Source: Pyropia yezoensis
Taxonomy: Eukaryota > Rhodophyta > Bangiophyceae > Bangiales > Bangiaceae
NCBI GenBank assembly: GCA_009829735.1
Contig: CM020620.1
Span: 26,010,951-26,074,950, forward strand
Length of the DNA stretch: 64,000 nt
Direction of reading: 5' to 3'
Part shown: one piece after another, positions 10,576 through 58,197 of the stretch
Position numbering within the stretch: the stretch's first letter is position 1
How the letters are laid out: each line of letters begins with the position of its first letter
The notes under the pieces: generated by a model
Databases searched by the model: none
Told to the model about the DNA's origin: nothing
The model's input: only the letters and a program-made list of their open reading frames with translations
Made by a program: the position numbers and the translations under genes

Positions 10576-11276
10576 CGTTCTACCACAGTAGCCGCGGTAG
10601 CGAGCACAAACACGCTTTCGAGGTGTAGCCCCGCCCGTTCCCCAATTTCTCCCAATGGAGGGCCCCCTGCCCCCCCTGACCGCGGTGACAAGTTCGTCAA
10701 AGATCCGGCCTTCCGACACTGTGTTGGTCTGCGTGGGGAGGGCACTACCGTCGCAGACGCCGTAGCTGCCGCCGCTTGTTGGCGCGGAGAGGGGCGCCCC
10801 ATTCAGGACGGTAATTCATCGGCGGGGACCATCGTGTGAGAAGAAAAGAAGTCCATGCCACTCACCGGTTGCGAGAGGGGTGGCGGCGGCTCCTCTGTCG
10901 ACACCGCCGCGGCGGCTGTGCCGGCAGCAGCCAGGAGTGGGGGGGGGGGGGGGGGGGTTGGGGAGGCGCGGGGGGGGGGAGGATGTCGGGGGGCGGTCGG
11001 AAGATCTCATGGGAGCAGGGGACGTCGCGCAAGCCACAGCCGCGGGCGCGAATGCATATCAGGACGGCCGCCGGGTCGGCCGCCACCGCCCACGCCCTGC
11101 ACCATTCGTCCATGATGGCCGTGGCAAGGTGGCCGCCGCGAGGCCACCACCACACCCCCACTCCCCCCCATCCCCCATGTCCTGGGAAGTGCACCGCCAT
11201 GCGCCTTGTTCACGCCGGCCGCATGGGCTGTAGTGGCGCCAGGTGCCAACTCGATGGCGGTGGCGCGACGCGATTT

Positions 11277-11744
11277 TGTGGCAGTATTGACCCCCAGGTA
11301 GGGGGCAACACGTGCCATGCAAGGGGCGGCAGGCCACTAGCCTGATCCGTTCCTCCCCCTGCATTTGGGTCCATATTCCCTAAGTTCGGGATAGTTAGCT
11401 TAGTAGTAAATCCAACTTGGATTTGAGGGTTTTCTGCATTTATCGTCTTGAATTTTCGTGTGGCCCGGTGGGCAGGTGCTGGGGTGGGAGATTCTGAGTG
11501 GCGAGATTCTGAGTGGACCCTGGGGGGATAAGGGGAGGGACAGCGGGGCTTGGCCCTGCGTCCCCGTCCCGACCAAGAAACTGTTGGACCACACACCATC
11601 TTCTTGTTTGTCCGTGGGGGGATTGCCCCACAACAGGGATAGAGTGTGTGCGACTTGCACTTCTTCCGGTTCCCCCGACACGGGAGGCAGCCCTCGCACA
11701 CCGCCCCAACTTGGGTACTGTGTGTGCGAGTGGTTTTTGCCACA
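11277..11744 (+). repeat. 5' LTR of family B element (468 bp)
   Basis: It is bounded by TGTGGCA and TGCCACA. Its sequence matches 20192-20659 by eye without differences. It is preceded by GATTT (11272-11276), which recurs after the 3' LTR. Confidence 0.97.
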
Positions 11745-11746
11745 TT

Positions 11747-11765
11747 TGGTGGAGCAGCAGGGGAC
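11747..11765 (+). other. Primer binding site, family B element
   Basis: TGGTGGAGCAGCAGGGGAC lies two bases after the 5' LTR. The same 19 bases follow the family A LTR, so both families would use the same tRNA primer. Confidence 0.75.
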
Positions 11766-11863
11766 AGAGGTAAACTTTACCTCCGGGTGCACCCGGGTGT
11801 AGGGGGCCCTCTGTCTCAGAGGAACGGTGGACTTGGACCGTGTCATACGGATCGTTAGCCAAC

Positions 11864-13810
11864 ATGGCTAGCTCGGACCCCCCGTCGTCCGGGGAGTACA
11901 CGGGTGACGCACGTACTTCAGTGCCTTTGAATACTGGTGAGACACAGGTGGGTTTACCTGGGGTCGCAGAGGGACTAGAGGTCCCTCAAGCCAGCAGGAC
12001 TGGAAGTGCGGGCGGGCAACAGGCCACCCCGACTCAGTCGGGAGTTCACTCGGGTGACACTTCTGACGTGGGTGGGCCGAAGTCTGGCCACCGCGTGGTA
12101 TACTCAACGGGAACGTCCCAAGGGGTGAGGACTGTCCCCGCGAGTTCCACTCGGGTTGGAGCCAACTTTGGCATGGAGCCATCGCCAACTAGGCTTTCGG
12201 AGGACGGCGGACCTCCGTTGGTCGGCGATGGGCTCGCGCCCATGCCCCCGGTTGAGACCCCTGAGGAACGTGGTTACCCCTCAGGTGGACTCCCGGAGGT
12301 GGACCGAGACTCAACTGGAGTCGTCAATCCACTCCTCGCGGAAACTGTCCGTCGGGAGGCGACCACTGTGTTGCGGCAGACTTTGCCGGACCTGGTGGTC
12401 ACGATGACGAATACTATTCTGAATCAGATTGTGGCGAGTTTGCCAGATGGCCTTAATGTCCAGACCGGATTGGGGCCTTCGAGCCCGCAGGCGCAGGGGG
12501 TGCCCCCCCTGACACCTATCTCGGGTCGCCCTGAACAGGGGGCGACCCCTGTGACTCCCAACGAGGGAGCCACACCATACTCGGTGGGGCGTACGCCCTT
12601 CATGGGGGAGTTCCCCCCGACAACACCGGCGGCTACACCAAGCGCGCCGCGCCGGACTACAGGCACTGTGGGTGAACTTACCCCAGTGCCACAGCGGCTG
12701 TTCCCTCAACGTGAGGTGCCGCCCAAGATCCAGGTAGCCAACCCGGTCTACCAGAGAATCTTTGACTGTGAGACCTACGCCCTCCACAACAAGTCGGTGG
12801 CGTATGGTCCTGACCAGGCCCGAGCCATGGGCCGTGCCAAGAAGAATGCACTTCACTCTTTTGGGCACAAAGCGGAGTGGGATGGAACTCCCCCCCTCCG
12901 TGTCTTTGAGTTCCTACGTCGTTTCACAAAAGCCTGTGACGACAATGCCATAAGTGAAGGCATGGCTTTTTACATGCTACAGGAGCTTACGAAGGGAGAC
13001 CTGCGGACAGAACTTATGTCCGTCATGCCCAGCTCCTCAAGTGGAAGCGCTGGGGAGGTGACGTCCTATTTGGAGCTCGTCAACTGGTTGTTGAGGGCCA
13101 TGGTTGATGAAGCGGCGTTGGCTTCTCAAGTCGAGGAGTTTACGCAAGCCCATCAGGAAGAGGCGGAGGACGAGTTGTCCTTTGCGGAGCGAGTCCGTAA
13201 GCTCAACAATCTTTGTGGGTTTCTTCATCCACAAGCTGTGGTGAAGAGTCGGTTTGTGGAAGGACTCCACTGGTCAGTCCGGATGGAGACCCGGGAGCAT
13301 AACACTGCCCGGGCGACCCTGGCCGAGTTGGCTAGGTTCGCCTACCGCAGAGGCGAGGCCTACCGCAAGTTGCGGGAAGAACAACGCCAGGAGCGTCAGG
13401 CCGAGTTGGCCAAGGAACGGGAAGAGGCGCGCCAGGCCAGAGAGTTGCGAGAGGCACGCCGAATCCGCAAGGAGAGGGTGGTAGCTGCCGTGGGAACTTC
13501 CCAAGGTACCTCGTCGTCTTCCCCAGTTGGGAAGACCCCTCCGGGAACTGATCATCGGTGTTGGAACTGCAACTCCGATGGTCACTGGGCATATGATTGC
13601 CCCAAGTTGAGTAAACGCATCCAACAGCTTGTTAGGAATGCGAGTAAGAAGTCGGCTACGAACGAAGTGCGTTCACGCCGCGAGGGTGGGTCTCGACCAG
13701 TGGTGGCGGTCGCCACACCCTCGACGGAGGGGGCGGACACGTCGTCCTCGGACTCGTCGTCGTCCCCTTCGCCCTCAGATTCGGACGCCAAGTCGGCGGG
13801 AAACGAATGA
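11864..13810 (+). CDS. gag: Gag polyprotein of family B chromovirus
   Basis: The protein has 648 residues. The start is the ATG at 11864 (AACATGG); an in-frame GTG lies eight codons upstream. The N-terminal half is Ser/Thr/Gly/Pro-rich. A retrotransposon gag core follows at about residues 335-500, then a charged helical stretch rich in Arg/Glu (residues about 500-545) and a CCHC knuckle (CWNCNSDGHWAYDC, about 566-580). The C-terminal tail is Ser/Asp-rich and ends AGNE. It should form the particle and bind RNA. The stop TGA overlaps the pol ATG (ATGA), and the frame shift from gag to pol is -1. Confidence 0.93.
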   Translation: MASSDPPSSGEYTGDARTSVPLNTGETQVGLPGVAEGLEVPQASRTGSAGGQQATPTQSGVHSGDTSDVGGPKSGHRVVYSTGTSQGVRTVPASSTRVGANFGMEPSPTRLSEDGGPPLVGDGLAPMPPVETPEERGYPSGGLPEVDRDSTGVVNPLLAETVRREATTVLRQTLPDLVVTMTNTILNQIVASLPDGLNVQTGLGPSSPQAQGVPPLTPISGRPEQGATPVTPNEGATPYSVGRTPFMGEFPPTTPAATPSAPRRTTGTVGELTPVPQRLFPQREVPPKIQVANPVYQRIFDCETYALHNKSVAYGPDQARAMGRAKKNALHSFGHKAEWDGTPPLRVFEFLRRFTKACDDNAISEGMAFYMLQELTKGDLRTELMSVMPSSSSGSAGEVTSYLELVNWLLRAMVDEAALASQVEEFTQAHQEEAEDELSFAERVRKLNNLCGFLHPQAVVKSRFVEGLHWSVRMETREHNTARATLAELARFAYRRGEAYRKLREEQRQERQAELAKEREEARQARELREARRIRKERVVAAVGTSQGTSSSSPVGKTPPGTDHRCWNCNSDGHWAYDCPKLSKRIQQLVRNASKKSATNEVRSRREGGSRPVVAVATPSTEGADTSSSDSSSSPSPSDSDAKSAGNE

Positions 13811-13843
13811 CCGTTGGAGCTGGTCGTCCGAAGCTCACAACGG
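13798..13843 (+). promoter_or_regulatory. Probable -1 frameshift signal: GGGAAAC plus stem-loop
   Basis: The heptamer GGGAAAC (13798-13804) is in the gag register GCG GGA AAC. A six-base spacer (13805-13810) contains the gag stop. Then CCGTTGGAGCT (13811-13821) pairs with AGCTC and CAACGG (13832-13836 and 13838-13843): 11 base pairs with one bulged A and a 10-base loop. Heptamer, 5-9 base spacer and stable stem match the known layout of -1 frameshift elements. The alternative is reinitiation at the overlapping ATGA. Confidence 0.75.
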
Positions 13844-16800
13844 CAGCCTCGGCCAAGTGGGCCAAGAGGACGAACCAACCGTGTCGGATACTGCGGCGAC
13901 CTAAGGGAGTCCGCCCACCTCGGGTGGGACTTCCCAAGAACGTAAACCCACGTCGGGTCATCGCGGTGCTGACGGGTGAGAACTTCCAGGTGGCTGGACG
14001 GGTGCAACTTGCCCCCGGCCGCGCCTGTTGTGCCCGTATCGTACTTGATACCGGGTCAGGAGCCTCCTTGATACGCAAGTCGCTATTACCAAAGGGGATG
14101 AGGCTCCAACGCTGGAAGTCTAAAGCGGACCATCTGATCGATATCAATGGTGGGGTACTTCCCATCGTTGGTGCCGTGACCCTACCAACTCGGTTGGGGA
14201 CCCATGAGGTCGACGTGACCTATGGTGTAGTTGAGAATATATCGGTACCCCTGCTTCTGGGTACCCCTTATGTCGTAACACAAGTGCCTTTGATTTGTGG
14301 CCCTGAGTACTGGGTCAAGTTGATGAATGGGGAGACTATCCCCATCCTTGGTAAGGGAAAGTCTGTGGCTCCTGTGACAGTTTCACAGTCGAAGCCTGTT
14401 TGTTCTGTGAGGGAAGGGTTTACTGCTACTCTGCGTTTAGCCCGTAAAGTCATGTTGCCCCCCAACTCGGTGGCGCACGTGGATGTTGTAACTGATTATG
14501 CGGGGAACGGGTTGGTGCACCCTAACCCCCGTCTTGCTCGCAAGCACCAAGTGCATGTTGCCCTTGGCACGATGGACTCCAAAGCCGGAGTCCCGTGGAG
14601 GATCCAGGTGATGAACCTGAGCTCGTCGCCCAAGTTCTTCAAGTCGGGGGCCAAGTTCGGCTATATCGACCAACACGAGGGACCGGTAGTAGCGGTCACC
14701 CTCAGCGCGGGCGCAAGTAGCGACCCGAAGTCCGGAAAGGAGAAGCATCAAGCCAAGTCGGCCGCCTCTCCTCGGCCCCAGGTAAACATGGAGGGTGTTC
14801 CACCCAGGTTGAGGGTTCAAGTTGAACGCCTCTTGGACCAATATCACAAGTTGTGGGATGGTCAATTGGGACTCATGAGAGCTACCCAACACCGGATCGA
14901 GTTGAAACCCGGTGCGCCCCCTATACGCCAACAACCGTATAGGGGGGGACCCCGTTCAAGGGCCCTCGTTAAGGAGCAAGTTGCTCGCATGGAGGCCCTC
15001 GATGTGATCGAGGCCAGCAACGCCGAGTGGGCGAGTCCGGTGGTGATCGTCCCCAAAGTTGATGGGACCCCCCGGTTCTGTATCGACTGCCGTAAGCTCA
15101 ACGAGAGCACGGTGAAGGATAGTTATCCCCTACCTCGGATGGATGACTGTCTGGACTCTCTGGGGGAGGCAAACGTGTTCTCTACCCTGGACTGTAACGC
15201 GGGGTACTGGCAAATTCCCATTGCCCCGGAGGACAGGCATAAAACTACCTTTACCTGTCACTGTGGTACCTACCAGTGCAAGCGTCTACCGTTTGGCCTG
15301 TGTAACGCGCCGGCAACTTTCCAGCGCGCTATGGACATGATTCTGGCCGGAGTACGGTGGCAGATCTGTCTCGTGTACCTAGACGATATCATTGTGTTCT
15401 CCCGAAGTCCGGAGGAACACATTGGCCATCTTGGCCAGGTGTTCAAGCTACTTGCTGACGCCGGAGTGTCACTGAAGGCGAGTAAGTGCCACCTCTTCAC
15501 TCAAGAGGTGGAGTACTTGGGACATGTTGTCCGTCCGGGGCGTCTCAGTGTCAACGAGAAAAACTTGAGGGCCATCCGCAAGGCTCAGTACCCCCGGACC
15601 CAGACCCAGATGAGGAGCTTCCTCGGGATGTGTAACGTGTACCGACGTTTCACTAAGGGCTTCGCCAAAGTGGCGAAGCCGTTGAATGAGTTAGTGAGCT
15701 CAACGCTACCGAAGAACCTGCCTCCCCCAAGTCGGGTGGAGCAGGAATCCTTTGAGACTCTTCGGGACCTTCTGCTGAAGCCCCCTATCCTGGCTATTCC
15801 CTGGTTGGGAGGCCACTACATCCTGGATGTGGACGCTAGCTACGACCAACTTGGTTGTGTGTTGCTTCAGCAACAGCCGGACAAGGAGTACTTGCCGGTG
15901 GGATACTACAGCAAGGGGCTAAACTCGGCCGAGAAGAACTACGGAGTCACCGAGTTGGAAGGACTCGCAGTGGTATGGGCGGTGACGTCACTTCGTCACT
16001 ACCTAGAGGGTGAGAAGTTCCTCATCCGCTGTGACCACCGCGCGTTGCAGTTCATCTTCAAGACGGACTGTACGAACACTCGTCTCAACCGGTGGAGGGT
16101 GCGACTTGCACCCTTCAACTTTGATATTGAGTACCGACCTGGCAGGCAACATGCCCTTGCCGACGGCCTCTCTCGGGTACCTACCGAGGGACTGGACACC
16201 ACCCCAGTCGATGAGGACATCCCCATCGTGGGGGTAGTCACGCGCTCGGGTCAGGCGTTGAATCCCGAGGCGCCAGGGAACAAGAAGTACTTGCCCCTGT
16301 CCCTGGACGAAGTAGTGAAGGCCCAGGCCGAGGATCCCTTCTGCAAGTCGCAGAGGGATACCCTGGATACAGTGGCGGAGACGCGGTTCTTCCTGGGAGA
16401 CGATGGCCTCCTCATGAGGAGGGGGGTATTCCAGGGGACCGAACAACTTGTCGTCCCCGCATCCCTCAAGGACAGTATCCTTGAGAGGGAGCATAACGCT
16501 CCCACGGGTGGACACCTGGGGTCTAGTAAACTGTACCAGACCCTGAGGACCAGGTACTACTGGCCGTCCATGGTGGTGGACATCTACAGTTGGGTGGCTG
16601 CCTGCACAAGTTGTGCACAGAACCGTCTGATGGAACGGCGGCCTACTACGGCTATGCTATTGTTCCCGGCCAAGGAGCCCTTCGCCGCGTTGGCGATGGA
16701 CATCCTTGGGCCACTGCCAGTGACCGAGGAGGGCAACCAGTACCTCCTGGTCATCTGTGACCGCTTCACGAAACTTACGCGAGCGATCCCACTGGCAGAG

Positions 16801-17790
16801 ATCACGGCCATGTCGGTCGTGTCAGCCTTCCTAGATCACTGGGTTGCCGCGTATGGCATTCCGGATAGTACACTATCGGACAATGGACCGCAATTTGCGT
16901 CTGTACTGTTTCAAGGAGTGCTGGATATGTTGGGGGTTAAGGCAAACTATGCCACCCCCTACCACCCACAAACTAATGGGCAGGTGGAGCGCTTCAACAA
17001 AACTATTGTTAGGCAGCTGCGCCATTATGTGAGTGAACACGTGAAGACGTGGGACCAATACATTTCTATTCTGACCACTGCCTACAATTCGCAGGTTCAC
17101 TCATCTACCGGGGAAGTACCCCTCGCTTTTGTGACCCCCCGTCGCGTGCGGTCTATTGCCGTGCGGCGGCCGCTCCCAACTAGGGAGGATGGTGGCAGTA
17201 CGCCCACTCCTACTGAGAGTAAGGCGGAGTTCGCTGCTAGGCTTGAAAACCTCATCCCTAAAGTCAGGGCTGAGATGGACAAAGCACAAAAGCGCTACAA
17301 GCGTACCTTTGACAAAAAGGTGCGCAACGCCAAGCATGTCCCCGAGCAGGGTGACTGGGTATTGGTCCACTCACACACCCCAACTGGGGGTAAGTTGGTG
17401 TTCCAGACGAAGGGGCCGTACCAGGTCCTTCGTACTGATGGGCGGCGCTTCACCATCGAAAGTGACGATGGGGTCCGCACAGTGAACGGACAGGACGTGG
17501 TCAAAGTTGCACCACCGCCTGCAGGCGACCCAGCTTGGGCGCGTGCTTTGAAAACGTGGCGCCTGCCCTCGCTGCCTGCAGCCAAACAGGGCCCGCAGGA
17601 GTACGTGTTTGACAAGTTCATCGACCACGGCTGGGATGAGGATACTGACCGCCTCATGTTGAGGGTGCGTTGGTTTGGCTACAAAGCCAAGGATGATACG
17701 TGGGAGTATGTGGAGGACCTTCCTGCTGAGAAGGTCCGGGCGTACTGTGCCCGGAACGAGATAGACCCTAACAGCCCTCCCTCAACGTGA
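13807..17790 (+). CDS. pol: Pol polyprotein (PR-RT-RH-IN-chromodomain) of family B chromovirus
   Basis: The protein has 1327 residues and is intact. Domains in order: aspartic protease with LDTGSG (Asp 81); reverse transcriptase with PLPRMDD, LPFGLCNAP and YLDD at about 524-527; RNase H starting near LDVDASYDQLG (about 673); and integrase. The integrase has an HHCC zinc finger (H...H...CTSC, about 897-935) and a D-D-E core: AMDILGP (about 965), SDNGPQF (about 1025), QVERFNK (about 1061). A C-terminal chromodomain (YVFDKFIDHG... LRVRWFGYKAKDDTWEY, about 1265-1320) is diagnostic of chromoviruses and should guide insertion through histone marks. The gene lies 111 bases before the end of the convergent antisense ORF. 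Confidence 0.96.
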   Translation: MTVGAGRPKLTTAASAKWAKRTNQPCRILRRPKGVRPPRVGLPKNVNPRRVIAVLTGENFQVAGRVQLAPGRACCARIVLDTGSGASLIRKSLLPKGMRLQRWKSKADHLIDINGGVLPIVGAVTLPTRLGTHEVDVTYGVVENISVPLLLGTPYVVTQVPLICGPEYWVKLMNGETIPILGKGKSVAPVTVSQSKPVCSVREGFTATLRLARKVMLPPNSVAHVDVVTDYAGNGLVHPNPRLARKHQVHVALGTMDSKAGVPWRIQVMNLSSSPKFFKSGAKFGYIDQHEGPVVAVTLSAGASSDPKSGKEKHQAKSAASPRPQVNMEGVPPRLRVQVERLLDQYHKLWDGQLGLMRATQHRIELKPGAPPIRQQPYRGGPRSRALVKEQVARMEALDVIEASNAEWASPVVIVPKVDGTPRFCIDCRKLNESTVKDSYPLPRMDDCLDSLGEANVFSTLDCNAGYWQIPIAPEDRHKTTFTCHCGTYQCKRLPFGLCNAPATFQRAMDMILAGVRWQICLVYLDDIIVFSRSPEEHIGHLGQVFKLLADAGVSLKASKCHLFTQEVEYLGHVVRPGRLSVNEKNLRAIRKAQYPRTQTQMRSFLGMCNVYRRFTKGFAKVAKPLNELVSSTLPKNLPPPSRVEQESFETLRDLLLKPPILAIPWLGGHYILDVDASYDQLGCVLLQQQPDKEYLPVGYYSKGLNSAEKNYGVTELEGLAVVWAVTSLRHYLEGEKFLIRCDHRALQFIFKTDCTNTRLNRWRVRLAPFNFDIEYRPGRQHALADGLSRVPTEGLDTTPVDEDIPIVGVVTRSGQALNPEAPGNKKYLPLSLDEVVKAQAEDPFCKSQRDTLDTVAETRFFLGDDGLLMRRGVFQGTEQLVVPASLKDSILEREHNAPTGGHLGSSKLYQTLRTRYYWPSMVVDIYSWVAACTSCAQNRLMERRPTTAMLLFPAKEPFAALAMDILGPLPVTEEGNQYLLVICDRFTKLTRAIPLAEITAMSVVSAFLDHWVAAYGIPDSTLSDNGPQFASVLFQGVLDMLGVKANYATPYHPQTNGQVERFNKTIVRQLRHYVSEHVKTWDQYISILTTAYNSQVHSSTGEVPLAFVTPRRVRSIAVRRPLPTREDGGSTPTPTESKAEFAARLENLIPKVRAEMDKAQKRYKRTFDKKVRNAKHVPEQGDWVLVHSHTPTGGKLVFQTKGPYQVLRTDGRRFTIESDDGVRTVNGQDVVKVAPPPAGDPAWARALKTWRLPSLPAAKQGPQEYVFDKFIDHGWDEDTDRLMLRVRWFGYKAKDDTWEYVEDLPAEKVRAYCARNEIDPNSPPST

Positions 17791-17901
17791 GGGAAGGCCG
17801 AGCAACAGTGCCAAGAGAGTGCTTCAAGTCGAAGTGGTACGCAGAGTGGCTTGTAACTACAGCCCTAACCCTCACGCTCTCACAACAAAGGCAGCTGCCA
17901 A

Positions 17902-19845
17902 CTAGGCACGCATGCTAGACTCTCCCACTCCACGGCCCTCGCCCTCACGTGGAGGCGAGCGGCGAGACCCACGCCGATAACGGTCTCCACTCGTTGGAAG
18001 GGGTGGCGGCTCCAAGTCGGAACCGTCGCGCCCCTCACGGTCGCGCAAGTGGCGCCGACCGTGGCTACTCTTCTGCCTGGTCTTGCGCGCAAGTTTGCGA
18101 CGCAGACGCTGGACAGACTCCGTCTCCGATGGGGTAGAGGACTCCGAGACGGAGTAAGACAACTCGTCTTCCGACACGGAGGGAGAGCGCCGCGAGTGAC
18201 GGCGACGACGGCGAGGAGGCGAGTATGCCCGGCTCGCACGACGCTTGCCACGCCCAAGTGGGGTTGGCTGGGGCATAATAGCCCCAATGCGAGCCAACTC
18301 GGCCGTCGTAAACTCCGCCACCGACTCGCAACTCGCGGTCGCCACTGCAGTACGAACGCGCTCCTCAAGTTGAGGAGTCTCGGAACTTTGGAGGGTTGCG
18401 GTCGACGCGGCCAACCAGGAAATGGTGCGCACCAACGTGGTGATCATCATCTCTGAGGTTAGAGGCGTGGGCGGTAACACCAACTTGGGGTATACCGTCA
18501 GGAGGGTGGCCCCCAAGTTGGGGGACACCGGTGTGGATGACTCCACGGCCACGCTGATCGGGATGTTCCCGTGAGGCTGGAAAGGAACAGGAGGAAGCGG
18601 AGGGGCACGCCGAGGTGGCGGTACCCGGGTGTAACTGCGACCCCGACTTGGGGCCCCCGCAGTAGGTTGAGTCATATGGTCATCATATGAGGGCACAGCC
18701 ATAACTATGGGCTTGTCCGGGGGTGGCGCAGTGTGACGATCCACCCCCGGGGCATACGGGTAGTCCCCGATGCCCAACCCCTCTCGTAGGACCACACGGC
18801 CGTCGTGAAGTTCACGAGCGACCCACACGAACTGGCGAAGTGCGCCATCGTCCTTGGGCCCCCGAGTGGGGCGGCGCAACTTGTGCTCAATGCTCTCCCA
18901 CTCGATAAACTTGTGGAGGCGGAGCATCTCCTCAAGTAGAGTGAGTTGTCCTGACGAGCACCCCTCAGCAACTAGCTGAGGGGTGAGCTGTTCCAAACCC
19001 TGGATGAGCCGGAGGGGGAGATGCCAGAGCATCCCCCGCCGCTGAACACATGACACCCAGGTCGACATGACCTCGAGGAGCCACTGGGTGGCCAACATGG
19101 CCCACACCAGATGATCAGGGCCAGCCGTCAACATGACGGAGCCGAAGTGGTCAAGCAACCGTGGCAACAATGCCGGGAACCCGTAGGGGACCTCAACTTG
19201 AGGCCACCACTCGGGCTTCTTCGGGTAGTATTGCTCCTTACTGGCAGCAGACTGCTGAGGAAACTCAAGTTGAGCCGAGGTCACCAAGTAGGGACCTCGC
19301 CGGAAGTCCTTCTCCATCCGCACATCAAAGTGATGAGTGTGCGGATCGGCCTCGTGGAGGTACGGGGGGCGAGTTGCCACCGCGTCCCAAGTGAAGGTCG
19401 GCAAGTCGCCGGGACCCGGGATAGTTCCCCCGCGGTCCACCATGGCCTTGGCCCGCTGCACGTCCTCGACCTCCTCGTCGTCCAGGAAGGCAAACTGGTC
19501 CGTCCTGAAGCCGGCAGGGAACCCGACCCTACGGGGATACTTCTCCCGTAGGCGGTCCCATACCCGACCCATCGCTGCGCCGAGTCGGCCACAGCGAAGA
19601 ACAGTCAACCCCTCCTCATACAGAGGCCAAGCGGGGTAAAACCACCGCCCCAAGGCCTCACGCGGGACAACTTGTCCCGCCTCCGGGGGAGATCCTGCCG
19701 TCAACCCAAAGCCGGGTGACGCGGGAGTCCCACCCCCCGGAGCGATCGCGGAGCCCCCGCCGGAAGTCCCGGCGGGCGCTGCACCGTAGGAGGTGTCCTC
19801 CATACGCTCATCGAGAGAGTCCGTCTCCACTCCCGGAGTCGCCAT
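17902..19845 (-). CDS. Antisense accessory protein of family B chromovirus (unknown function)
   Basis: I chose the ATG at 19845 (CCATGG context), giving 647 residues; the copy at 51057 has an ATG at the same place. The N-terminus is acidic and Gly/Ser-rich. A folded-looking core (about residues 60-370) has motifs shared with relics in two other families: VWDRLREKYP, DLPTF, PEWWPQVEVPYG, HFGSVML, LREGLG and PYAPG. The last ~130 residues are Arg/Ser-rich (RRRRRHSRRSPS type), suggesting nucleic-acid binding or nuclear targeting. No transmembrane segment or signal peptide is seen, so it is not an obvious envelope protein. It lies between pol and the 3' LTR on the opposite strand, so it needs its own antisense promoter. 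I do not recognise the family. Confidence 0.8.
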   Translation of the reverse strand: MATPGVETDSLDERMEDTSYGAAPAGTSGGGSAIAPGGGTPASPGFGLTAGSPPEAGQVVPREALGRWFYPAWPLYEEGLTVLRCGRLGAAMGRVWDRLREKYPRRVGFPAGFRTDQFAFLDDEEVEDVQRAKAMVDRGGTIPGPGDLPTFTWDAVATRPPYLHEADPHTHHFDVRMEKDFRRGPYLVTSAQLEFPQQSAASKEQYYPKKPEWWPQVEVPYGFPALLPRLLDHFGSVMLTAGPDHLVWAMLATQWLLEVMSTWVSCVQRRGMLWHLPLRLIQGLEQLTPQLVAEGCSSGQLTLLEEMLRLHKFIEWESIEHKLRRPTRGPKDDGALRQFVWVARELHDGRVVLREGLGIGDYPYAPGVDRHTAPPPDKPIVMAVPSYDDHMTQPTAGAPSRGRSYTRVPPPRRAPPLPPVPFQPHGNIPISVAVESSTPVSPNLGATLLTVYPKLVLPPTPLTSEMMITTLVRTISWLAASTATLQSSETPQLEERVRTAVATASCESVAEFTTAELARIGAIMPQPTPLGRGKRRASRAYSPPRRRRRHSRRSPSVSEDELSYSVSESSTPSETESVQRLRRKLARKTRQKSSHGRRHLRDREGRDGSDLEPPPLPTSGDRYRRGSRRSPPREGEGRGVGESSMRA

Positions 19846-20178
19846 GGCTCTCCCCAAGTTGGGGAGAGACGTCCTGGCTATCGCGGCACGAGACCCGCCT
19901 CGAGTTGAGGGGGACTCGGATCGTGGGTAAACGGGTGGCCTCCCCAGCGTGGGGTGGCCCCGTGTAAGGTGAAGGAGAAGTGGTGGTGGTGGTGAGGTGT
20001 GAACCGAGGAGAGCAAGCTGCCAAGTGGGCAAGTTTGAGGAGAGGGGCGGCCAACGTGACCGCCTCCACATCCGCGTTACGTACTCAAGGGGGGACAGCA
20101 AGTCGCGTCCCCCCCCCCCCAACGCCGAGACGTGCGTTTACGTACCCCCTCACAGGGCCGACCGGGTCGGTCGGAACT

Positions 20179-20191
20179 GAGGAGAGGGGAG
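20179..20191 (+). other. Polypurine tract, family B element
   Basis: GAGGAGAGGGGAG directly precedes the 3' LTR, as expected for the plus-strand primer. The mirror arrangement is conserved at the B copy at 50718. Confidence 0.8.
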
Positions 20192-20659
20192 TGTGGCAGT
20201 ATTGACCCCCAGGTAGGGGGCAACACGTGCCATGCAAGGGGCGGCAGGCCACTAGCCTGATCCGTTCCTCCCCCTGCATTTGGGTCCATATTCCCTAAGT
20301 TCGGGATAGTTAGCTTAGTAGTAAATCCAACTTGGATTTGAGGGTTTTCTGCATTTATCGTCTTGAATTTTCGTGTGGCCCGGTGGGCAGGTGCTGGGGT
20401 GGGAGATTCTGAGTGGCGAGATTCTGAGTGGACCCTGGGGGGATAAGGGGAGGGACAGCGGGGCTTGGCCCTGCGTCCCCGTCCCGACCAAGAAACTGTT
20501 GGACCACACACCATCTTCTTGTTTGTCCGTGGGGGGATTGCCCCACAACAGGGATAGAGTGTGTGCGACTTGCACTTCTTCCGGTTCCCCCGACACGGGA
20601 GGCAGCCCTCGCACACCGCCCCAACTTGGGTACTGTGTGTGCGAGTGGTTTTTGCCACA
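20192..20659 (+). repeat. 3' LTR of family B element (468 bp)
   Basis: It is the same length as the 5' LTR and identical by eye. It is followed by the target duplication GATTT at 20660-20664. Confidence 0.97.
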
Positions 20660-20664
20660 GATTT

Positions 20665-22455: not shown

Positions 22456-23889
22456 ATGCGGGACCAGGAGGACATTGAGGAGGCCTCGGCCGTTGCTGCC
22501 CACCTTTCCGTTCTGCGGCGTTATCGCCGCCGTGTGCGCGCGACCCACCGTGGGAAGCGGCTGAGGTACCGCGGATCTGCGCGGGGCCGGCAGAACAAGC
22601 CACGGGACTTTGCGTTTGGCATGTTTTGTATCTTACGTGACTATTTTGGTGTGAATGGTGCCCCCCCTGTGTACTCGGAGGCCGATTTTGAGCGTCGCTT
22701 TCGCGTCCCTCGCGCTGTGTTTGTCCGCGTGTATCGAGCTTTGAAGGACCGGCCGTGGTGGGCGCAGAAGGTCAACGCAACCGGCCAGCTGCAGGCCCAC
22801 CCGCTGCAGAAGCTTGTTGCCGCTTTTCGAGTGCTGGGGTATGGGGAAGCCACTGACCGTGCAGATGAGTACTGCCGCATTTCCTCCACCACGATCGAGA
22901 TTGCTGTGAAGAAGCTGGTTGTTTTTATTGGTAATGAGCTTGGAGGCGAGTACCTGCGCCCACCCAACGATGCCGAGCTGGACGTGCTGCTGAAGAGGAG
23001 CGCGGAGAGGGGCATGCCGGGCTGCATTGGATCGCTGGACTGTTCCCAGTGGGAGTGGAAGAACTGTCCGAAGGGGCAGGCTGGTCTGTACCAGAACAGA
23101 AAGGGGCGCCGGGCAGTTTTCATGGAGACCGTGTGTGACGAGGACCTGTATATCTGGCACCTGTTTGTCGGCTGCCCAGGCAGTATGAATGACCTCAATG
23201 TTATGCAGCAGTCTCCGCTCTACCAGGATATCACTGCGGGGGATTGGCCGCCTCGTAGAAAGCCCTTCACTATCAATTGCCACACGCGCACGCTTCCCCA
23301 TTACCTGGTTGACGGCTTTTACCCGCACTACGCCTTCTACATTTGCTCGTATGGACGGGCTGTCACAGACAAGCAGGAGACCTTAAATCGCCTCCAGGAG
23401 GCGCTGCGTAAGGACGTTGAGCGACTTTACGCGGTACTGACCTCTCGCTTTCACATCGCCCTCCACCCGGCCAGGTACGCCAAGGTCACAACCATCTGTT
23501 CTGTGGCCAAGGCGGTTGCTATCTTGCAGAACATGGTGACTCAGGTGCGTCGGGGGGGGTATCTGGCCAAGCAGCGGCGGGACTTCGCTGTTGCTGTTGC
23601 TGAAGAGACGTCGGACTCTGGTTCTTTGAGTGAGTCGGGTGGCTCTGCCGCCGGGAGTGGTGCACCTGGCAGTAGGCGGGGGGGAGGTCCACTTGGAGGA
23701 CGCTTTCCCACCGCTGGCGAGGCAGGCCCAGACATCATGCCCATTGCCCAGGCGGCACCCAACGCGTTTGTACGAGCTATGATGGCCTGGAAGGAGGTCC
23801 GAAGTGCTAAGGAGCACGTCGCGCTGCGTAACGACCTCGCCGAGCACATCTACCGCGACCGGGAGGAGCTGCTGGAGCCGTACCTGTGA
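22456..23889 (+). CDS. PIF/Harbinger transposase (plant_tran/DDE type)
   Basis: The protein has 477 residues and an intact frame from an ATG at 22456. The N-terminal part is basic (RRYRRRVRATHRGKR). The nuclease follows: GSLDCSQWEWKNCP with catalytic Asp 195, FVGCPGSMNDLNVM with Asp 246, and LRKDVERLYAVL with Glu 322. The pattern WxWKNCP...PGSxND...DVERxxxVL is that of the Plant_tran family within PIF/Harbinger. The last ~90 residues are a Gly/Ser-rich linker and a helical tail. It should cut and paste an element with 3-bp duplications. A MYB-like gene in convergent orientation at 25255-26694 fits the known two-protein system. Exact element ends are not found. Confidence 0.92.
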   Translation: MRDQEDIEEASAVAAHLSVLRRYRRRVRATHRGKRLRYRGSARGRQNKPRDFAFGMFCILRDYFGVNGAPPVYSEADFERRFRVPRAVFVRVYRALKDRPWWAQKVNATGQLQAHPLQKLVAAFRVLGYGEATDRADEYCRISSTTIEIAVKKLVVFIGNELGGEYLRPPNDAELDVLLKRSAERGMPGCIGSLDCSQWEWKNCPKGQAGLYQNRKGRRAVFMETVCDEDLYIWHLFVGCPGSMNDLNVMQQSPLYQDITAGDWPPRRKPFTINCHTRTLPHYLVDGFYPHYAFYICSYGRAVTDKQETLNRLQEALRKDVERLYAVLTSRFHIALHPARYAKVTTICSVAKAVAILQNMVTQVRRGGYLAKQRRDFAVAVAEETSDSGSLSESGGSAAGSGAPGSRRGGGPLGGRFPTAGEAGPDIMPIAQAAPNAFVRAMMAWKEVRSAKEHVALRNDLAEHIYRDREELLEPYL

Positions 23890-25254: not shown

Positions 25255-26694
25255 CTACACGCCGGCATCACTATCAGATTCACTGCTGGATTGGTCAGAA
25301 AGGCGGGGAGTCCGCGCCCGCCCGCGGGGCGAGGACAGCCCAGAGGACAGCTCGGACTCATCGAGGGGTAGCGTGGTGCCCAGTGACTTGTTCTGCAACT
25401 TCGCCGCGGCCGCCACCTTTGTCAGTTGGGCTTTGGCCGCGCGCGAGAGCGCGAGAACAGGGGGCACAACAGTTTGGGGGCTGGAGCGTTGAGCGCCCTC
25501 CGCTGCTGCGGGTACTTGCGCAGGTGTGGCTGCCTCCGGTCGCGTAAGCGGCCGCACGGGCCGGTCCAGGGCCGCTTCAACAGTTTCCAATGGCCCAGCC
25601 GCAGAGGCGGGCAGCGGCACCATATGAACAGGGGCGGCGGGGGGGGACGGCGGCGGTCGCACACTGTCGTCGTCGTCGTCGTCCTCGTCGGCAGGGGCCG
25701 CGGATGGGGGCGGCGGCGGTCGCACACTGTCGCCGTCGTCGTCCTCCTCGTCAACAATCTCATAAACAGCAGGCACGGTCGTGGCGTCCATTGCCGCGGC
25801 CGGGCTCACCGTCGGGGGGGTCCAGGACTTGGCCGGCTCGGGGCCGAGAGGAATGCCGGCCGCCTTCAGCATCTGGCGCGCCTTGGTGCGCATAAACAGC
25901 TTCGCCTCCTCCGTATCGCGCATGTTGGGCTGGTTGAAAAGGATAATGGCCGACCGCTCGGCCGCGGCATTTGCCACAGCTTGGAGTGCTTCAGTGCTGG
26001 CCCGCACTTCCCGCGCCGCCGCAATGTCTTCCTTGCGGCCACGCTTAGCCGCTTTGGTGCCAGGTGTGCGAGGGTCAAATTTGCGTGCAGGGCCCCCGAC
26101 GTTGCCACTGGTGCGGGGGCCATCCGCCGGGTCGTCCGTCTCAGGTTCGTCATGCTCGCTCGTCCCGCTGCCCTCCGTGCCGCTGCGGGTGCCGATTCCC
26201 GCCGCGGCCGATCCAGCGGCGCCGCTCCACTTCTCCGAGTTGCGCAGTACCTTCCAGCACGGGACATATTTCTGCAGCGGGTAGTACTTGCGCTTCCCAG
26301 TCTCGGCCTCCGCCCCGTCCATACGCGCCTGATGCTTTCGGATAGCCTCGTAGATGTCCATGCCCTTGCTGTGGGCCAAAGCGCCCTGGATGACCGCCTC
26401 CTCGGTCGGGTTGCCTGTCAGCTTCAGGCGCTGCACAGCTAAAAACGACGATGCGAAAGCGCTGGTCCCCTTCTTGACTTTGTCCCAGGTCTTGGTGATC
26501 GATCCCACCGTGCGGTCGTTCGTCATTGGCAGCGCCCCGCGGGCGCGCATCAGGTCCAGGTACTCGTCGCGCACCCCAGTGTAGAAGTCTGCCCCCCTCT
26601 GGTCCGTCCCCACAATGTTGTCTTGCGTCTTCACAAGCCATGCCTGCGACAAACACGTCAGCTCCACCTCCGACCACCCCAGGCCAGAGCCCAT
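25255..26694 (-). CDS. MYB/SANT-like DNA-binding protein of the Harbinger module
   Basis: The protein has 479 residues. I chose the ATG at 26694 (CCATGG), directly before the first recognisable domain. Residues about 5-130 form a trihelix/MYB-like region: WSEVELTCLSQAWL, then GADFYTGVRDEYLDLM, RTVGSITKTWDKVKKGTSAF, and after about 60 residues KYYPLQKYVPCWKVLRNSEKW. That order matches plant NAM-associated/MYB-like proteins that accompany PIF/Harbinger transposases and help them bind DNA and enter the nucleus. A basic stretch (KRGRKED), an Ala-rich helix and acidic DEDDDD linkers follow, and the tail is Ser/Asp-rich. It converges on the transposase gene. Confidence 0.8.
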   Translation of the reverse strand: MGSGLGWSEVELTCLSQAWLVKTQDNIVGTDQRGADFYTGVRDEYLDLMRARGALPMTNDRTVGSITKTWDKVKKGTSAFASSFLAVQRLKLTGNPTEEAVIQGALAHSKGMDIYEAIRKHQARMDGAEAETGKRKYYPLQKYVPCWKVLRNSEKWSGAAGSAAAGIGTRSGTEGSGTSEHDEPETDDPADGPRTSGNVGGPARKFDPRTPGTKAAKRGRKEDIAAAREVRASTEALQAVANAAAERSAIILFNQPNMRDTEEAKLFMRTKARQMLKAAGIPLGPEPAKSWTPPTVSPAAAMDATTVPAVYEIVDEEDDDGDSVRPPPPPSAAPADEDDDDDDSVRPPPSPPAAPVHMVPLPASAAGPLETVEAALDRPVRPLTRPEAATPAQVPAAAEGAQRSSPQTVVPPVLALSRAAKAQLTKVAAAAKLQNKSLGTTLPLDESELSSGLSSPRGRARTPRLSDQSSSESDSDAGV

Positions 26695-26698
26695 GGCG

Positions 26699-31648: not shown

Positions 31649-31679
<31 letters not shown>

Positions 31680-41546: not shown

Positions 41547-41560
41547 CCTCCCCCCCCTTA
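41547..41560 (-). other. Polypurine tract, family D element
   Basis: On the minus strand TAAGGGGGGGGAGG runs straight into the 3' LTR. Its first three bases are the pol stop codon TAA. Confidence 0.85.
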
Positions 41561-47272: not shown

Positions 47273-47274
47273 CA

Positions 47275-50717: not shown

Positions 50718-51056
50718 CTCCCCTCTCCTCAGTTCCGACCGACCCGGTCGGCCCTGTGAGGGGGTGCGTAAACGCACGTCTCGGCGTTGGGGGCGCGACT
50801 TGCTGTCCCCCCTCGAGTACGTAACGTGGATGTGGAGGCGGTCACGTTGACCGCCCCTCTTCTCAAGCTTGCCCACTCGGCAGCTTGCTCTCCCCGGTTC
50901 TCACTTCACCATCACCACTACCTCCCCTTCACCTTCCACGGGGCCGCCCCACGCTGGGGAGGCCACCCATCTACCCACGATCCGAGCCCCCCTCAGCTCG
51001 AGGCGGGTCTCGTGCAGCTGCAGCCAGGTCGTCTCTTCCTAACTTGGGGAGAGCCA

Positions 51057-52582
51057 TGGTGACCCCGGGGGTGGAGACTGACTCTTTGGATGAACGTATG
51101 GAGGACGCCTCCTACGGTGTAGCGCCCGACGGGACTTCCGGCGGGGGCTCCGCGGTTGCTCCGGGGGATGGGACTCCCGCGCCACCCGACTTTGGGTTGG
51201 CGGCGGGATCTCCCCCGGAGGCGTCCCGGGTCATCCCACGGGAGGCCTTGGGGCGGTGGTTCTACCCCGCTTGGCCTCCATATGAGGAGGGGTTGACGGT
51301 TCTTCGCTGTGGCCAACTTGGCACAGCGATGAGTCGAGTATGGGACCGCCTACGGGAGAGGTATCCCCGTAGGGTCGGGTTCCCTGCCGGCTTCAGGACG
51401 GACCAGTTTGCCTTCCTGGACGATGACGAAGTCCAAGACGTGCAGCGGACCAAGGCCATGGTGGACCGCGGGGGAACTACCCCGGGTCCCGGCGACTTGC
51501 CGACCTTTACTTGGGACGCGGTGGCAACTCGCCCCCCGTACCTTCACGAGGCCGATCCGCACACTCATCACTTTGATGTGCGGATGGAGAAGGACTTCCG
51601 GCGAGGTCCCTCCTTGGTGACCTCAGCTCAACTTGAGTTTCCGCAGCAGTCCGCTGCTAGTAAGGAGCAGTGATATCCCAAGAAGCCCGAGTGGCGGCCT
51701 CAAGTTGAGGTCCCCTACGGTTTCCCTGCGTTGCTAACACGGTTGCTTGACCACTTCGGCTCCGTCATGTTGACGGCTAGCCCGGATCACCTGGAGTGGG
51801 CCATGTTTGCAACCCAGTGGCTCCTCGAGGTCATGTCGACCTGGGTGTCTTGTGTCCAGCGGCGGGGGATGCTCTGGCATCTTCCTCTTCGGCTTATCCA
51901 AGGTTTGGAACAGCTCACCCCTCAGCTAGTTGCTGAGGGGTGCTCATCAGGACAAGTCACTCTACTTGAGGAGATGCTCCGCCTCCACAAGTTACTTGAG
52001 TGGGAGAGCATCGAGCACAAGTTGCGCCGCCCCACCCGCGGGCCCAAGGACGATGGCGCACTTCGCCAGTTCGTATGGGTCGGTCGTGAACTTCACGACG
52101 GCCGTGTGGTACTACGAGAGGGGCTGGGCATCGGGGACTACCCGTATGCCCCGGGGGTGGATCGCCACACTGCGCCGCCCCCGGACAAGGCCATTGTGAT
52201 GGCCGTGCCCTCTTACGATGACGATATGACTTAACCCACTGCGGGGGCCCCGAGTAGGGGTCGCAGTTACACTCGGGCACCGCCTACTCGGCGTGCACCT
52301 CCGCTTCCTCCTGTCCCCTACGAGCCGCACGGGGACAACCCGATAAGCGTGGCCGTTGAGTCGTCCACCCCGGTGTCCCCCAACTTGGGGGCCACTCTTC
52401 TGACGGTTTACCCAAAGTTGGTGTTACCGGCCACGCCTCTGACCTCAGAGATAATGATCACTACGTTGGTGCGCACCATTTCCTGGTTGGCCGCGTCGAC
52501 CGCATCCCTTCAAACTTCCGAGATTCCTGAACTTGAGGAGCGCGTTCGTACTGCGGTGGCGACCGCGAGTTGCGAGTCTGTG
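51057..52582 (+). pseudogene. Decayed antisense accessory ORF of family B copy
   Basis: It starts at an ATG aligned with the one at 19845 and follows the intact protein closely. In-frame stops are TGA at 51671-51673 (in SKEQYYP of the intact copy) and TAA at 52232-52234 (CAA in the intact copy, a C-to-T change). The frame then continues to SCESV at 52582, where the family A LTR is inserted. The high similarity outside the stops confirms that the antisense frame was once under protein-level constraint or is only recently decayed. Confidence 0.88.
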
Positions 52583-52945
52583 TGTAGCACAATAGGTATC
52601 CGCTGCACGTCCACTCTCAGGAAACACTTACGACGGGGGATCGGCACCAACGTCACCGGGAGGCCAAGGTTGCTGTCCTTGGAGCGCAAGCCACGGGACC
52701 AAGATGGGAGCCCAAATGGGAGCGGTTTGTTGTTCTACCTTGGCCGGCAGTGGATTCGCCACCGGCCCCCTCGTTGTAAACCCTCGGAGACACTACTCAC
52801 TACTCTCCACCCCAAGATGCAAGTCCCTCTGGTCATACGTAACTGATAGATACCGTGACCAGTACGGACTCCCAAATTGACAGTTAAGGGTCAGAAGTAG
52901 CCCCCCTAATATTAGGGTCACAATACGGTCAACCATATTGCTACA
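52583..52945 (-). repeat. 3' LTR of family A copy 2 (363 bp)
   Basis: It is the same length and orientation as 2693-3055. A purine tract (minus strand TCTAAAGGGGGGATA, 52946-52960) abuts its right edge, showing that the element interior lies to the right. The insertion point is inside the family B antisense ORF relic. Confidence 0.9.
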
Positions 52946-55836: not shown

Positions 55837-56366
55837 CACTGGGTCAGCTCGGTCCCATGGTTTTCTCCCCTGGGGAGACAATCGTGTCCGTCCCCGTTGA
55901 ACGACAGGGGGGGGGCATGTGTGGAGACACCCCCCTCAAAACCACCACCTGAGGGGTGGGGGACGAAGCAAGGATAGGGCCTGTCGCCTCCCACGGCCCT
56001 GCCCGCACAGGGTGGGGCCGTGAGGGGACTGGCTCTCCTGGCGTAGCCGGGAGCGAGGGGTTTAGGGGCCTCTTGTGCACCCCCCGCTCGGCCCCTTGTC
56101 AGGGGGCTGAGGGATAGAAGAGGGCCGCCTGTCCACCCGAGAGGGGTGGATCGTAGCGAGGGGGGCGGCAACGGGTGCTCGCCGCGAGGACGGCCTCCGT
56201 CCCCACCACTCCCGCTACTCCTTCTCGCTGCCACCGGTCTGCGTGCGTCTCCCTCGCCCTCACCCTAAGGGTGGGGGTGGCATTCACACTCTTCCCCCCC
56301 CCCGTCCCCATTGGAGAGCTGTCAGTCATTGCTATCCCGTCGGGGCAGTTGGGCAACCCCGCTCCC
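55837..56366. other. Interval between the two antisense ORF relics
   Basis: It is GC-rich with C/G runs. If family C is a separate element, its 3' LTR must lie here or just to the left, but I could not define LTR ends. One frame across 55640-55952 reads a plausible peptide (EEWMTLGQLGPMVFSPGETIVSVPVE split over a frame change), which may be more of a decayed ORF. Confidence 0.35.
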
Positions 56367-58061
56367 ATGGGTGAGGGTGGCGGGTCCGCTTCCTCTCCGG
56401 CTCCTTCCTCCCCCCGTGGCCCTTCGGACACGGGGTTGCCACCCGCCTCTCCCGACGACGTCCCGATGGACGACGCCGGGAGTGGCCGGGGTGATGCCGG
56501 TCCGGCTTCGCCGGCCGAGGTACCTGTTCCGCCGTCGGCGGACTCACGGGGGCCGGGCTCCTTCGGGGAAGTCATCCCCTTTCACAAGGAGTGGCCCTAC
56601 CCTCACGCGCATCCCGGCGCGGTCACCGACCGGTGGGTTCAGGTGGATCCACGCCGCATGACGGGGGTGTGGACAACATTCCGCCATCTCTACCCGGACC
56701 TCTACGAGGTCCCGATTGGGACGCCGACGGACTACCCCGTGGTCCGCTTTGCGGAGGATTGGAAGCTCGCTCAGCAGCTGGATGATGCGTGCTCGCGCCC
56801 CCCGTCACCACCGGGGACAATGCCGGTCTTCGACCTGGCGTATTACCCGGGTCCGTTACCGGTCATTGGGCGACGCCCTCGCAATTACTTCCTACGCCAA
56901 GCGTTAACGGAGCATCGGCATCGTCGGCGCCATGGCATCTTCGCCTGCGCAGAGCAGCGGGAGGTAGAGTGCTTCTCCCACGGAGAGCGCCTCAAGTTGT
57001 ACCTGGTCATCCCCTCTTGGTGGAGCGACTACGAGGTTCCACGCGGCATGGCCGCGCGTATTGGCAACTTAGTTGCCGTGCGGGGGAGTCGGCTGATGGC
57101 CGACGGCCCGGACTCGGCGGCCAGAGCAGCTCTGAACGCCTGCTAGCTGGTGGAGGGAGCCGACGTCTTGCTGTCTTCGGGGTTGTACTACGGACATGCT
57201 TGGCTTGTTCCGATCCCCCTTCTGCGTGCTCTCCAAGAGAGCCCCATTGACGTGTTGTGTCAGGGTAACCCTGACTCCGCGGCGTACCTGCGTGCACTTC
57301 TCCATCTCATCGAGAAGGTCCATCAAAAGGCCTTGCCTTCTTTCCTGGGTCTTCCTCTTCGAGCTCGTGCATTGGTACGATGCGCGAAGTCTTTGTCCGC
57401 GGACGGTGTTCTCTTCTTGGAAGAGGGGTTGGGTCACGAGGAGCTACCCTACCCTCCGGGGTTGATGGCCGCCACGCGGGTGCCCAACCCGGAACCCCGA
57501 ATGGAGGAGAAGGGGCCTTGTCGCCCAGGGTTTGGCCAGGAGCGGTATGGCCTGTCTATGCGGCCAAACTCCCCGAGGGGGAGTCGTGCTCAAGGCGCGT
57601 CATCTTCTGGGCGTTCCTTTGGAGCGCCCCCTCGGGGGAATTATCCCCCCGGTGAGGAGGTTCGGTCGCCCAGCGGACGGCGGGCAACGGTCCCTGAGCC
57701 AGTGGCTTCCTTCCGTTGGGGCGGTCCGCCTTTGGCGTTGCCTCGACCTATCCCGGGTACTACCGTAGCGGCATTGGGGCGGGTCTTTGATCCACCCCCC
57801 CCATCCCTTGGGGATGCCGTCGAAGACTCCCTCGTCATGGGGCTATGTCGGGCCTACACGAGCCTGGCTAACGACATGGCGGCGATTGTCACCACACGTC
57901 GAGACTGGCGGGATATTCCGCCGGCGGCGTTGCCACTACTATCTCAGTCCGCGCTCTTCGAGCGCCTGGACCGAGAACTCGGGCGAGCTAGCATGGAAAA
58001 CATGTTGCAGATCCCGAGTTTGTCCCTCCGGGGCGCAGCCGAAGCCGCATACGGAGGTTGA
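56367..58061 (+). pseudogene. Family C antisense accessory ORF, one nonsense codon
   Basis: It starts at an ATG at 56367 (CCCATGGG) and would encode about 564 residues. A TAG at 57144-57146 interrupts it and the same frame continues. It aligns along its length with the family B antisense protein: GVWTTFRHLYP (B: RVWDRLREKYP), GTMPVF (B: GDLPTF), PSWWSDYEVPRG (B: PEWWPQVEVPYG), GSRLMADGPD (B: GSVMLTAGPD), LEEGLG (B: LREGLG) and LPYPPG (B: YPYAPG). Unlike B it lacks the long Arg/Ser tail. It ends 136 bases before the convergent pol stop at 58198, the same layout as in B. Confidence 0.8.
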
Positions 58062-58197
58062 GGACATGGCCCTCGATACCATGATGGGTCCCAGCTCTAT
58101 GGGCACCGGGGTTACTGATGCATTGTAGGGCGCCTCGTAGAGGCGTCTCACGTAGTAGTCTGTTTCGTTTACCGATTTCCCTGAGGGAGATAGTTTG

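What the first reader, a model, noticed from the sequence alone, without database searches (positions are those of the whole stretch)
17902..19845. Conserved antisense, convergent accessory protein in several chromovirus families
A 647-residue ORF lies on the strand opposite pol, between pol and the 3' LTR, in an apparently young element. Relics with the same placement and orientation occur in family C (56367-58061), a second B copy (51057-52582) and, more remotely, family A (53535-55836). Between B and C the DNA is too diverged to align by eye, yet the motifs WxxxRxxYP, P-WW-EVP-G, GS-M-A-GPD and L-EGLG-PY-PG keep their order and spacing. This suggests protein-level selection across old lineages. 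Antisense additional ORFs are known in some plant LTR elements, but I do not recognise this family. The Arg/Ser tail in B suggests nucleic-acid binding.
Basis: partly seen in the sequence, partly recalled or inferred. Interest (0 to 1): 0.9.

Follow-up and report, generated by a model that had tools for sequence, protein, structure and literature searches.

The report
Backward gene in seaweed jumping genes
Retrotransposons of the nori seaweed carry an extra protein gene on the strand opposite their copying genes; natural selection has kept that protein intact in several element families, yet it resembles no protein family in the databases searched.

Summary
The 647-residue antisense ORF is real and behaves as a gene. 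It lies at 17902-19845 (-), convergent with pol, in a complete Ty3/gypsy element (11277-20659) with identical 468-bp LTRs and a GATTT target duplication. Chromosome lengths identify the host as Pyropia yezoensis, a red alga. The protein belongs to an orphan family present in element families B, C and F, and in a repeat D without detectable pol. All 41 loci with a readable pol end (39 distinct) are convergent. dN/dS is 0.18 between the window's two B copies and 0.12-0.24 in 42 pairs across two C subfamilies; pol of one such pair gives 0.15. In the C pairs only the antisense frame is free of stops. D copies evolve nearly neutrally (24 of 28 pairs 0.6-1.0). The claimed family-A relic (53535-55836) is not a homologue. 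No convincing Pfam, NCBIfam, PHROG, PDB or viral-contig relative was found; structure prediction failed (pLDDT 35). The arrangement is known (plant Grande, RIRE2, Retand; fungal Boty); the protein family and the red-algal host appear new in the searches made. Most likely a trans-acting accessory regulator made from its own antisense transcript; that function is inference.

The parts
11272..11276 (.). target-site duplication GATTT, left copy
   Evidence: sequence shown
11277..11744 (+). 5' LTR of element B, 468 bp, TGTGGCAG...TTTTGCCACA
   Evidence: self-comparison at offset 8915, identical over 468 bases
11840..13810 (+). gag ORF with CCHC zinc knuckle
   Evidence: PF00098 E 2.2e-5
13807..17790 (+). 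pol ORF: RT, RNase H, integrase, weak protease and weak C-terminal chromodomain matches
   Evidence: Pfam matches
17902..19845 (-). antisense ORF, 647 aa (P0001), convergent with pol; conserved core about residues 86-372, Arg/Ser-rich tail from about residue 530
   Evidence: dN/dS
19846..20191 (-). antisense 5' leader between 3' LTR and the ATG; proposed place of an antisense promoter (inferred). Also holds the sense strand's purine-rich tract 20180-20191 (read by eye)
   Evidence: sequence; the 267 bases next to the ATG differ at 27 positions between the two B copies
20192..20659 (+). 3' LTR of element B
20660..20664 (.). target-site duplication GATTT, right copy
51056..52585 (+). antisense ORF of a second, truncated B copy, with two in-frame stops
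   Evidence: tblastn 91% identity; stops; dN/dS 0.18 to the first copy
56328..58115 (+). antisense ORF of a family C element, one in-frame stop at 57144-57146
   Evidence: tblastn 95% to uninterrupted C copy L010
58324..60863 (-). pol of the family C element, convergent with its antisense ORF
   Evidence: two tblastn matches to B pol, 43% and 61% identity

Best explanation
A group of Ty3/gypsy chromovirus-like retrotransposons of Pyropia yezoensis carries a third gene. It lies between pol and the 3' LTR on the opposite strand and encodes an orphan protein of about 600-650 residues without membrane segments. Shown: homology across families, fixed convergent placement, and purifying selection on the protein within B and within C. 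Inferred: it is made from a separate antisense mRNA whose promoter lies in the 3' LTR or the 346-base leader, because the genomic RNA cannot encode it. The protein then acts in trans as an accessory regulator of the element (transcription, genomic RNA balance, integration or escape from silencing), as HBZ does for HTLV-1 and as has been proposed for GENE23 of Grande and TRP28 of Retand.
For: Coding: in four C pairs the antisense frame is the only one of six without stops, with dN/dS 0.15-0.19; in B1-B2 it gives 0.18, with the two stops of B2 skipped. Across all 42 pairs between the C subfamilies the ratio is 0.12-0.24; pol of L039-L040 gives 0.15. B1 against L044 gives dN 0.010, dS 0.096. Placement: 41 of 41 loci with a pol end are convergent, match ends 3-383 bp apart. 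Abundance: a 45-mer of the B antisense ORF occurs 966 times, an RT 45-mer 1135 times. 144 of 150 and 143 of 150 best-scored B-like matches have no stop in the matched stretch of about 200 residues (my count; best-scored copies only, of 1756 and 1702 candidates). Two of two B deletion derivatives seen, lacking most of gag and pol, keep the full 647-aa ORF (L007, L044). No membrane segment in B, C, F (highest 19-residue hydropathy 1.23-1.43) and a basic tail in B fit a soluble, possibly nuclear, protein.
Against: No RNA evidence for antisense transcription was available. The Arg/Ser tail is absent from C and F, so nuclear location or RNA binding is not a shared feature. No usable structure: pLDDT 34.7 and 34.8. 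Nothing separates a regulator from other trans-acting roles. Deletion derivatives may keep the ORF only because cis signals lie near it, and a C-like deletion copy (L058) has lost its C-terminal half. Within subfamilies ratios are higher (C1 0.19-0.68, C2 0.21-0.70, F pair 0.35), read here as neutral decay after insertion. The shared start column in the alignment is partly by construction, since I cut each frame at a chosen ATG.
Confidence: 0.5

Rival explanations
1. The antisense gene is a passenger: an independent gene or element (D-like) that inserted next to the 3' LTR of an ancestor and serves its own spread, not the host element.
For: A D repeat of more than 13 kb carries the same protein core with no match to the B pol in 28 kb; 24 D copies at 84% identity or more (my count).
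Against: D ORFs show near-neutral dN/dS (24 of 28 pairs 0.6-1.0), so there is no sign of selection for an independent life. Strong constraint is seen only in convergent elements. The same place and orientation in B, C and F suggests one old acquisition followed by co-descent (inference).
Confidence: 0.15
2. The antisense RNA, not the protein, is the active product: dsRNA with the genomic RNA triggers or tunes silencing.
For: The antisense transcript would be complementary to about 2 kb of genomic RNA (positions). The review raises this for plant elements (PMC7264820, passages).
Against: Protein-level constraint: low dN/dS in the coding frame, above 1.2 in four of the other five frames. RNA pairing alone would not protect codons. 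Both functions can coexist.
Confidence: 0.12
3. It is an Env-like or second structural (capsid-like) protein.
For: Helix-rich predictions, but at very low confidence; the position between pol and 3' LTR is that of env in retroviruses.
Against: Opposite strand; no membrane segment in B, C, F, though D reaches 2.15; no relation to the element's gag (hhalign probability 0.1%); no convincing Pfam hit.
Confidence: 0.06
4. Chance open frame in GC-rich DNA.
For: The window is 63.5% GC and has other long open frames.
Against: 0 of 500 shuffles reach it; homologues at 27-35% identity share invariant residues; purifying selection.
Confidence: 0.01

Closest known systems
Antisense additional ORFs between pol and 3' LTR (aORF-3R): Grande gene23, RIRE2, PvRetro13, fungal Boty
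   Same: Position, orientation, presence in most copies and unknown function, as described in PMC7264820 (abstract, passages and section 5).
   Different: Different host phylum (red alga). No sequence of those proteins was available to align, so non-homology to gene23, RIRE2, PvRetro13 and Boty is untested directly.
Retand TRP28 (PF04195) antisense proteins
   Same: [quoted passage not shown] non-autonomous versions exist (PMC11963269, abstract and passages).
   Different: No PF04195 match in any of 11 family members (E up to 5; the filter drops most matches above about 0.1). Retand is described as a non-chromovirus lineage of flowering plants; here a weak chromodomain-like end is present.
HTLV-1 HBZ and related retroviral antisense proteins
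   Same: Antisense gene at the 3' end of an LTR element; own promoter proposed here (HBZ facts from passages and recall).
   Different: No bZIP or other convincing Pfam domain; promoter and function not tested.

Membership tests
Ty3/gypsy LTR retrotransposon | LTR pair with TG...CA ends and target-site duplication | tested here: met
   identical 468-bp LTRs, TSD GATTT
Ty3/gypsy LTR retrotransposon | domain order RT, RNase H, integrase in pol | tested here: met
Chromovirus | chromodomain after integrase | tested here: inconclusive
   PF00385 at residues 1269-1313, E 0.00096, 19.5 bits against cut-off 25.1
aORF-3R elements | ORF between pol and 3' LTR, antisense to gag-pol | tested here: met
   full anatomy of element B; 41 of 41 loci with a pol end are convergent; LTRs of the other loci were mostly not mapped
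aORF-3R elements | present in most copies, conserved like other element proteins | tested here: met
   45-mer counts 966 antisense ORF against 1135 RT; dN/dS 0.18 (L010-L022) against 0.15 for pol of the same two loci (L039-L040)
aORF-3R elements | antisense transcription from its own promoter (reported for Grande) | not testable with these tools
   no RNA data; statement on Grande from passages
Retand TRP28 family | Transposase_28 domain PF04195 | tested here: not met
   no match in 11 members
Env-like aORF | sense orientation | tested here: not met
   antisense
Env-like aORF | transmembrane segment | tested here: not met
   highest 19-residue hydropathy 1.23-1.43 in B, C, F (usual threshold 1.6, recalled); D reaches 2.15
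HBZ-type antisense regulators | bZIP domain | tested here: not met
   no bZIP match
HBZ-type antisense regulators | promoter in 3' LTR, nuclear regulator | not testable with these tools
   needs RNA and cell data

The most novel reading that the evidence does not exclude
A red-algal lineage of chromovirus-like elements has, independently of retroviruses and of plant Tat/Retand elements, evolved a two-strand gene programme: gag-pol from the 5' LTR and a separate antisense regulator of a new fold from the 3' LTR side, which tunes sense transcription or counters silencing. Its retention by B deletion derivatives and its presence without detectable pol in D repeats would mean that the regulator is a tradable module.
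Probability: 0.25. Interest if true: 0.75.

Novelty: new variant of a known kind. Interest (0 to 1): 0.52.

Why it matters
Antisense extra genes in retrotransposons have been described mainly in flowering plants and their role is unknown. Here is such a family in a distant host, with protein-level selection measured, hundreds of copies, several divergent families and near-neutral comparison copies in one genome. That makes the question of what an antisense element protein does directly testable in a red alga.

Tried and rejected
Family A relic (53535-55836): no homology. Homology to the element's own gag: none. Viral source: no relative in viral contigs for the core profile (32 pattern matches, none confirmed) or for P0001; records near this genome may be left out there. 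Database homologues: 1, 3 and 6 hits in the 5.8-billion-protein collection, with only the 8000 candidates sharing most words scored each time. P0009 is 100% identical to a copy in this genome; P0008 has a best match of 86% and P0011 of 84% here, plus 94% over its first 122 residues. So cross-species conservation is not shown. Pfam over 11 members: two single-member matches at E 0.16 and 0.41, taken as chance. Solved structures: none with P0001, two hits at E 0.28 and 2.9 with the core profile. Structure prediction twice: too poor, so no fold search was made. Bacterial-type promoter and terminator scan: 0 and 2 sites, no more than in shuffles (0.5 and 2.1), and not suited to this host. The inverted repeat seen around D is a common dispersed repeat, not a terminal one. 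RT copies without an exact antisense 45-mer: of five fetched, two do have the antisense ORF and three stop matching inside pol. Dropped before counting: D loci L054 and L055 (broken frames) were left out of the D comparison, which used eight chosen copies without stops. Pol comparisons with relic L033 gave 0.42 and 0.49, and pol of the F pair 0.49, against 0.15 for L039-L040.

Full report
What the window is. It is G000:C3:26010951-26074950 of a 107.48-Mb genome in 11 contigs. Its three large contigs (29.39, 34.33 and 43.59 Mb) equal the three scaffolds reported for Pyropia yezoensis (29.4, 34.3, 43.6 Mb; PMC7423979, passages seen). The host is therefore taken to be that red alga.

The element. 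Positions 11277-11744 and 20192-20659 are identical over 468 bases, bounded by GATTT on both sides. Inside are gag with a CCHC knuckle and pol with RT, RNase H, integrase and a weak chromodomain. The antisense ORF starts at an ATG 346 bases from the 3' LTR and its stop lies 111 bases from that of pol. No frame in 500 dinucleotide shuffles of that interval reached its length.

A family, not a single ORF. Searching the genome with the C-family piece scored 124 matches out of 1040 candidates, from 100% down to 27% identity, many in long open frames, up to 923 codons. Eleven members (B, six C, two F, one D, and database protein P0004, a partial B) align with 33 invariant columns, among them W96, W213, E218-V219-P220, G222, G235-S236 and W255. 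I cut each frame at a chosen ATG, so the shared start column is partly by construction. B-C identity is 27%, C-F 30-35%. Pol of the same families is 50-60% identical, 45-48% between the relic L033 and B or F, so the antisense protein has diverged more than pol.

Placement. Of 64 units examined (contiguous pieces joined), 41 have both an antisense homologue and a pol C-terminus. All 41 are convergent with the nearest pol end, with 3-383 bases between match ends, and none has another arrangement. L010/L039 and L022/L040 are the same places, so 39 are distinct. Twenty further units have the antisense ORF but no pol end in the held DNA, ten of them D; three have no antisense ORF. Those three stop matching the element inside pol.

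Selection. With the Nei-Gojobori method (own script) the 42 pairs between C1 (L010, L011, L012, L016, L017, L038) and C2 (L022, L023, L026, L028, L029, L034, L037) give dN 0.15-0.21, dS 0.75-1.38 and ratio 0.12-0.24. For L010-L022 the differences by codon position are 108, 71 and 260. B1-B2 gives dN 0.043, dS 0.240, ratio 0.18 over 507 codons. Read in the other five frames, four C pairs and B1-B2 give 1.2-2.7, or 0.28-0.34 for the one frame that shares wobble positions; each of those frames holds 15 or more stops in the pair. By region, for L010-L022, the core is tightest (0.13) and the N-terminal low-complexity part loosest (0.54). Pol of L039-L040 gives 0.15; pol against relic L033 gives 0.42 and 0.49, and pol of the F pair 0.49, where the antisense ORF of the F pair gives 0.35. 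In B against L066 the antisense ORF has dN 0.038, dS 0.16 and pol 0.013, 0.11. Within C1 the ratio is 0.37-0.68 among five close copies and 0.19-0.27 against L038; within C2 it is 0.21-0.70: read as neutral decay of inserted copies on top of a constrained master lineage. B-C-F comparisons have saturated synonymous sites and are not used.

D as internal control. Twenty-four D copies at 84% identity or more carry the core alone, in a repeat longer than 13 kb whose right end lies near L047:795. No similarity to the B pol was found in 28 kb around one copy (part of it masked); a different pol type was not excluded. Eight D ORFs give ratios of 0.47-1.40, 24 of 28 pairs between 0.6 and 1.0, on few changes per pair. 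So the low ratios in B and C are not an artefact of the method.

Copies. The B antisense 45-mer occurs 966 times and an RT 45-mer 1135 times with up to three mismatches, against 0 for reversed controls. L007 and L044 share one deletion that removes most of gag and pol yet keep the full ORF. L007 is a mosaic whose 3' half is 99% like B1 while its 5' remnants are 86-93%. That suggests exchange with full-length elements, so selection on the derivative itself cannot be isolated. Against this, a C-like deletion copy (L058) has pol running into the middle of the antisense ORF.

What it does. The protein has no convincing Pfam, NCBIfam, PHROG or solved-structure relative, no membrane segment in B, C, F, no relation to gag, and a basic Arg/Ser tail in B only. 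An antisense gene cannot be read from the genomic RNA, so a separate transcript is needed (established logic). A trans-acting accessory regulator is the best fit. It is inferred by analogy with aORF-3R proteins (PMC7264820, passages and section 5; PMC11963269, passages) and HBZ, and is put at 0.5.

Known or new. The arrangement is known from plants and from fungal Boty. Searches of the paper library for Pyropia + LTR retrotransposon + antisense (0 papers), antisense ORF + LTR retrotransposon + algae (1 unrelated review, listing), Pyropia yezoensis + retrotransposon (17 papers, 13 listed; passages of one), red algae + Ty3 + chromovirus (166 papers, 15 listed), Porphyra + Ty3 (7 listed) and red algae + antisense transcript (6 papers, 5 listed) showed no report of it in red algae. 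The plant survey PMC6317226 holds none of five terms such as 'antisense' or 'red alga'. One survey found no retrotransposon chromodomains in red-algal data of 2012 (PMC3350952, passages), while the abstract of PMC3605345 speaks of chromoviruses even in red algae (listing). Subscription papers were not searched.

Noticed in passing
window 40577-48244: A second Ty3/gypsy element on the minus strand (LTRs about 970 bp, Ty3-type capsid gag, pol 31% identical to B). Its pol match runs to within about 60 bases of the 3' LTR, so there is no room for an antisense ORF.
   Followed up: partly
L042 (C3:25772800-25781800), L046, L047: D repeat: 24 copies of the 342-aa core protein in a unit of more than 13 kb, mostly 91-98% alike, with no detectable pol; type of element and left end unknown.
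   Followed up: partly
L007 and L044: Deletion derivatives of B with the same gag-pol deletion and an intact antisense ORF; L007 looks like a recombinant with a full-length B.
   Followed up: partly
window 36869-38845 (-): Sigma-70 factor (regions 1.2, 2, 3, 4), probably a nuclear gene for plastid transcription (that reading is recalled).
   Followed up: no
window 22456-23889 (+) and 25255-27582 (-): Harbinger-like transposase (PF04827, PF13359) with an ORF nearby that matches the NAM-associated domain, as in PIF/Harbinger elements (the pairing is recalled).
   Followed up: no
window 30395-36658 (+): 2087-codon open frame with no Pfam match; may be a chance frame in GC-rich repeats or an unknown protein.
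   Followed up: no
L045:6024-8138 (-): 705-codon open frame with a weak DUF1280 match (E 0.002, below its cut-off), perhaps a transposase-like ORF of another element (the resemblance is recalled).
   Followed up: no
window 20116-20220 against 50689-50793: The LTR edge and its flank are 98% alike between two B copies whose antisense ORF differs by dS 0.24, so this stretch may be constrained or recombined.
   Followed up: partly
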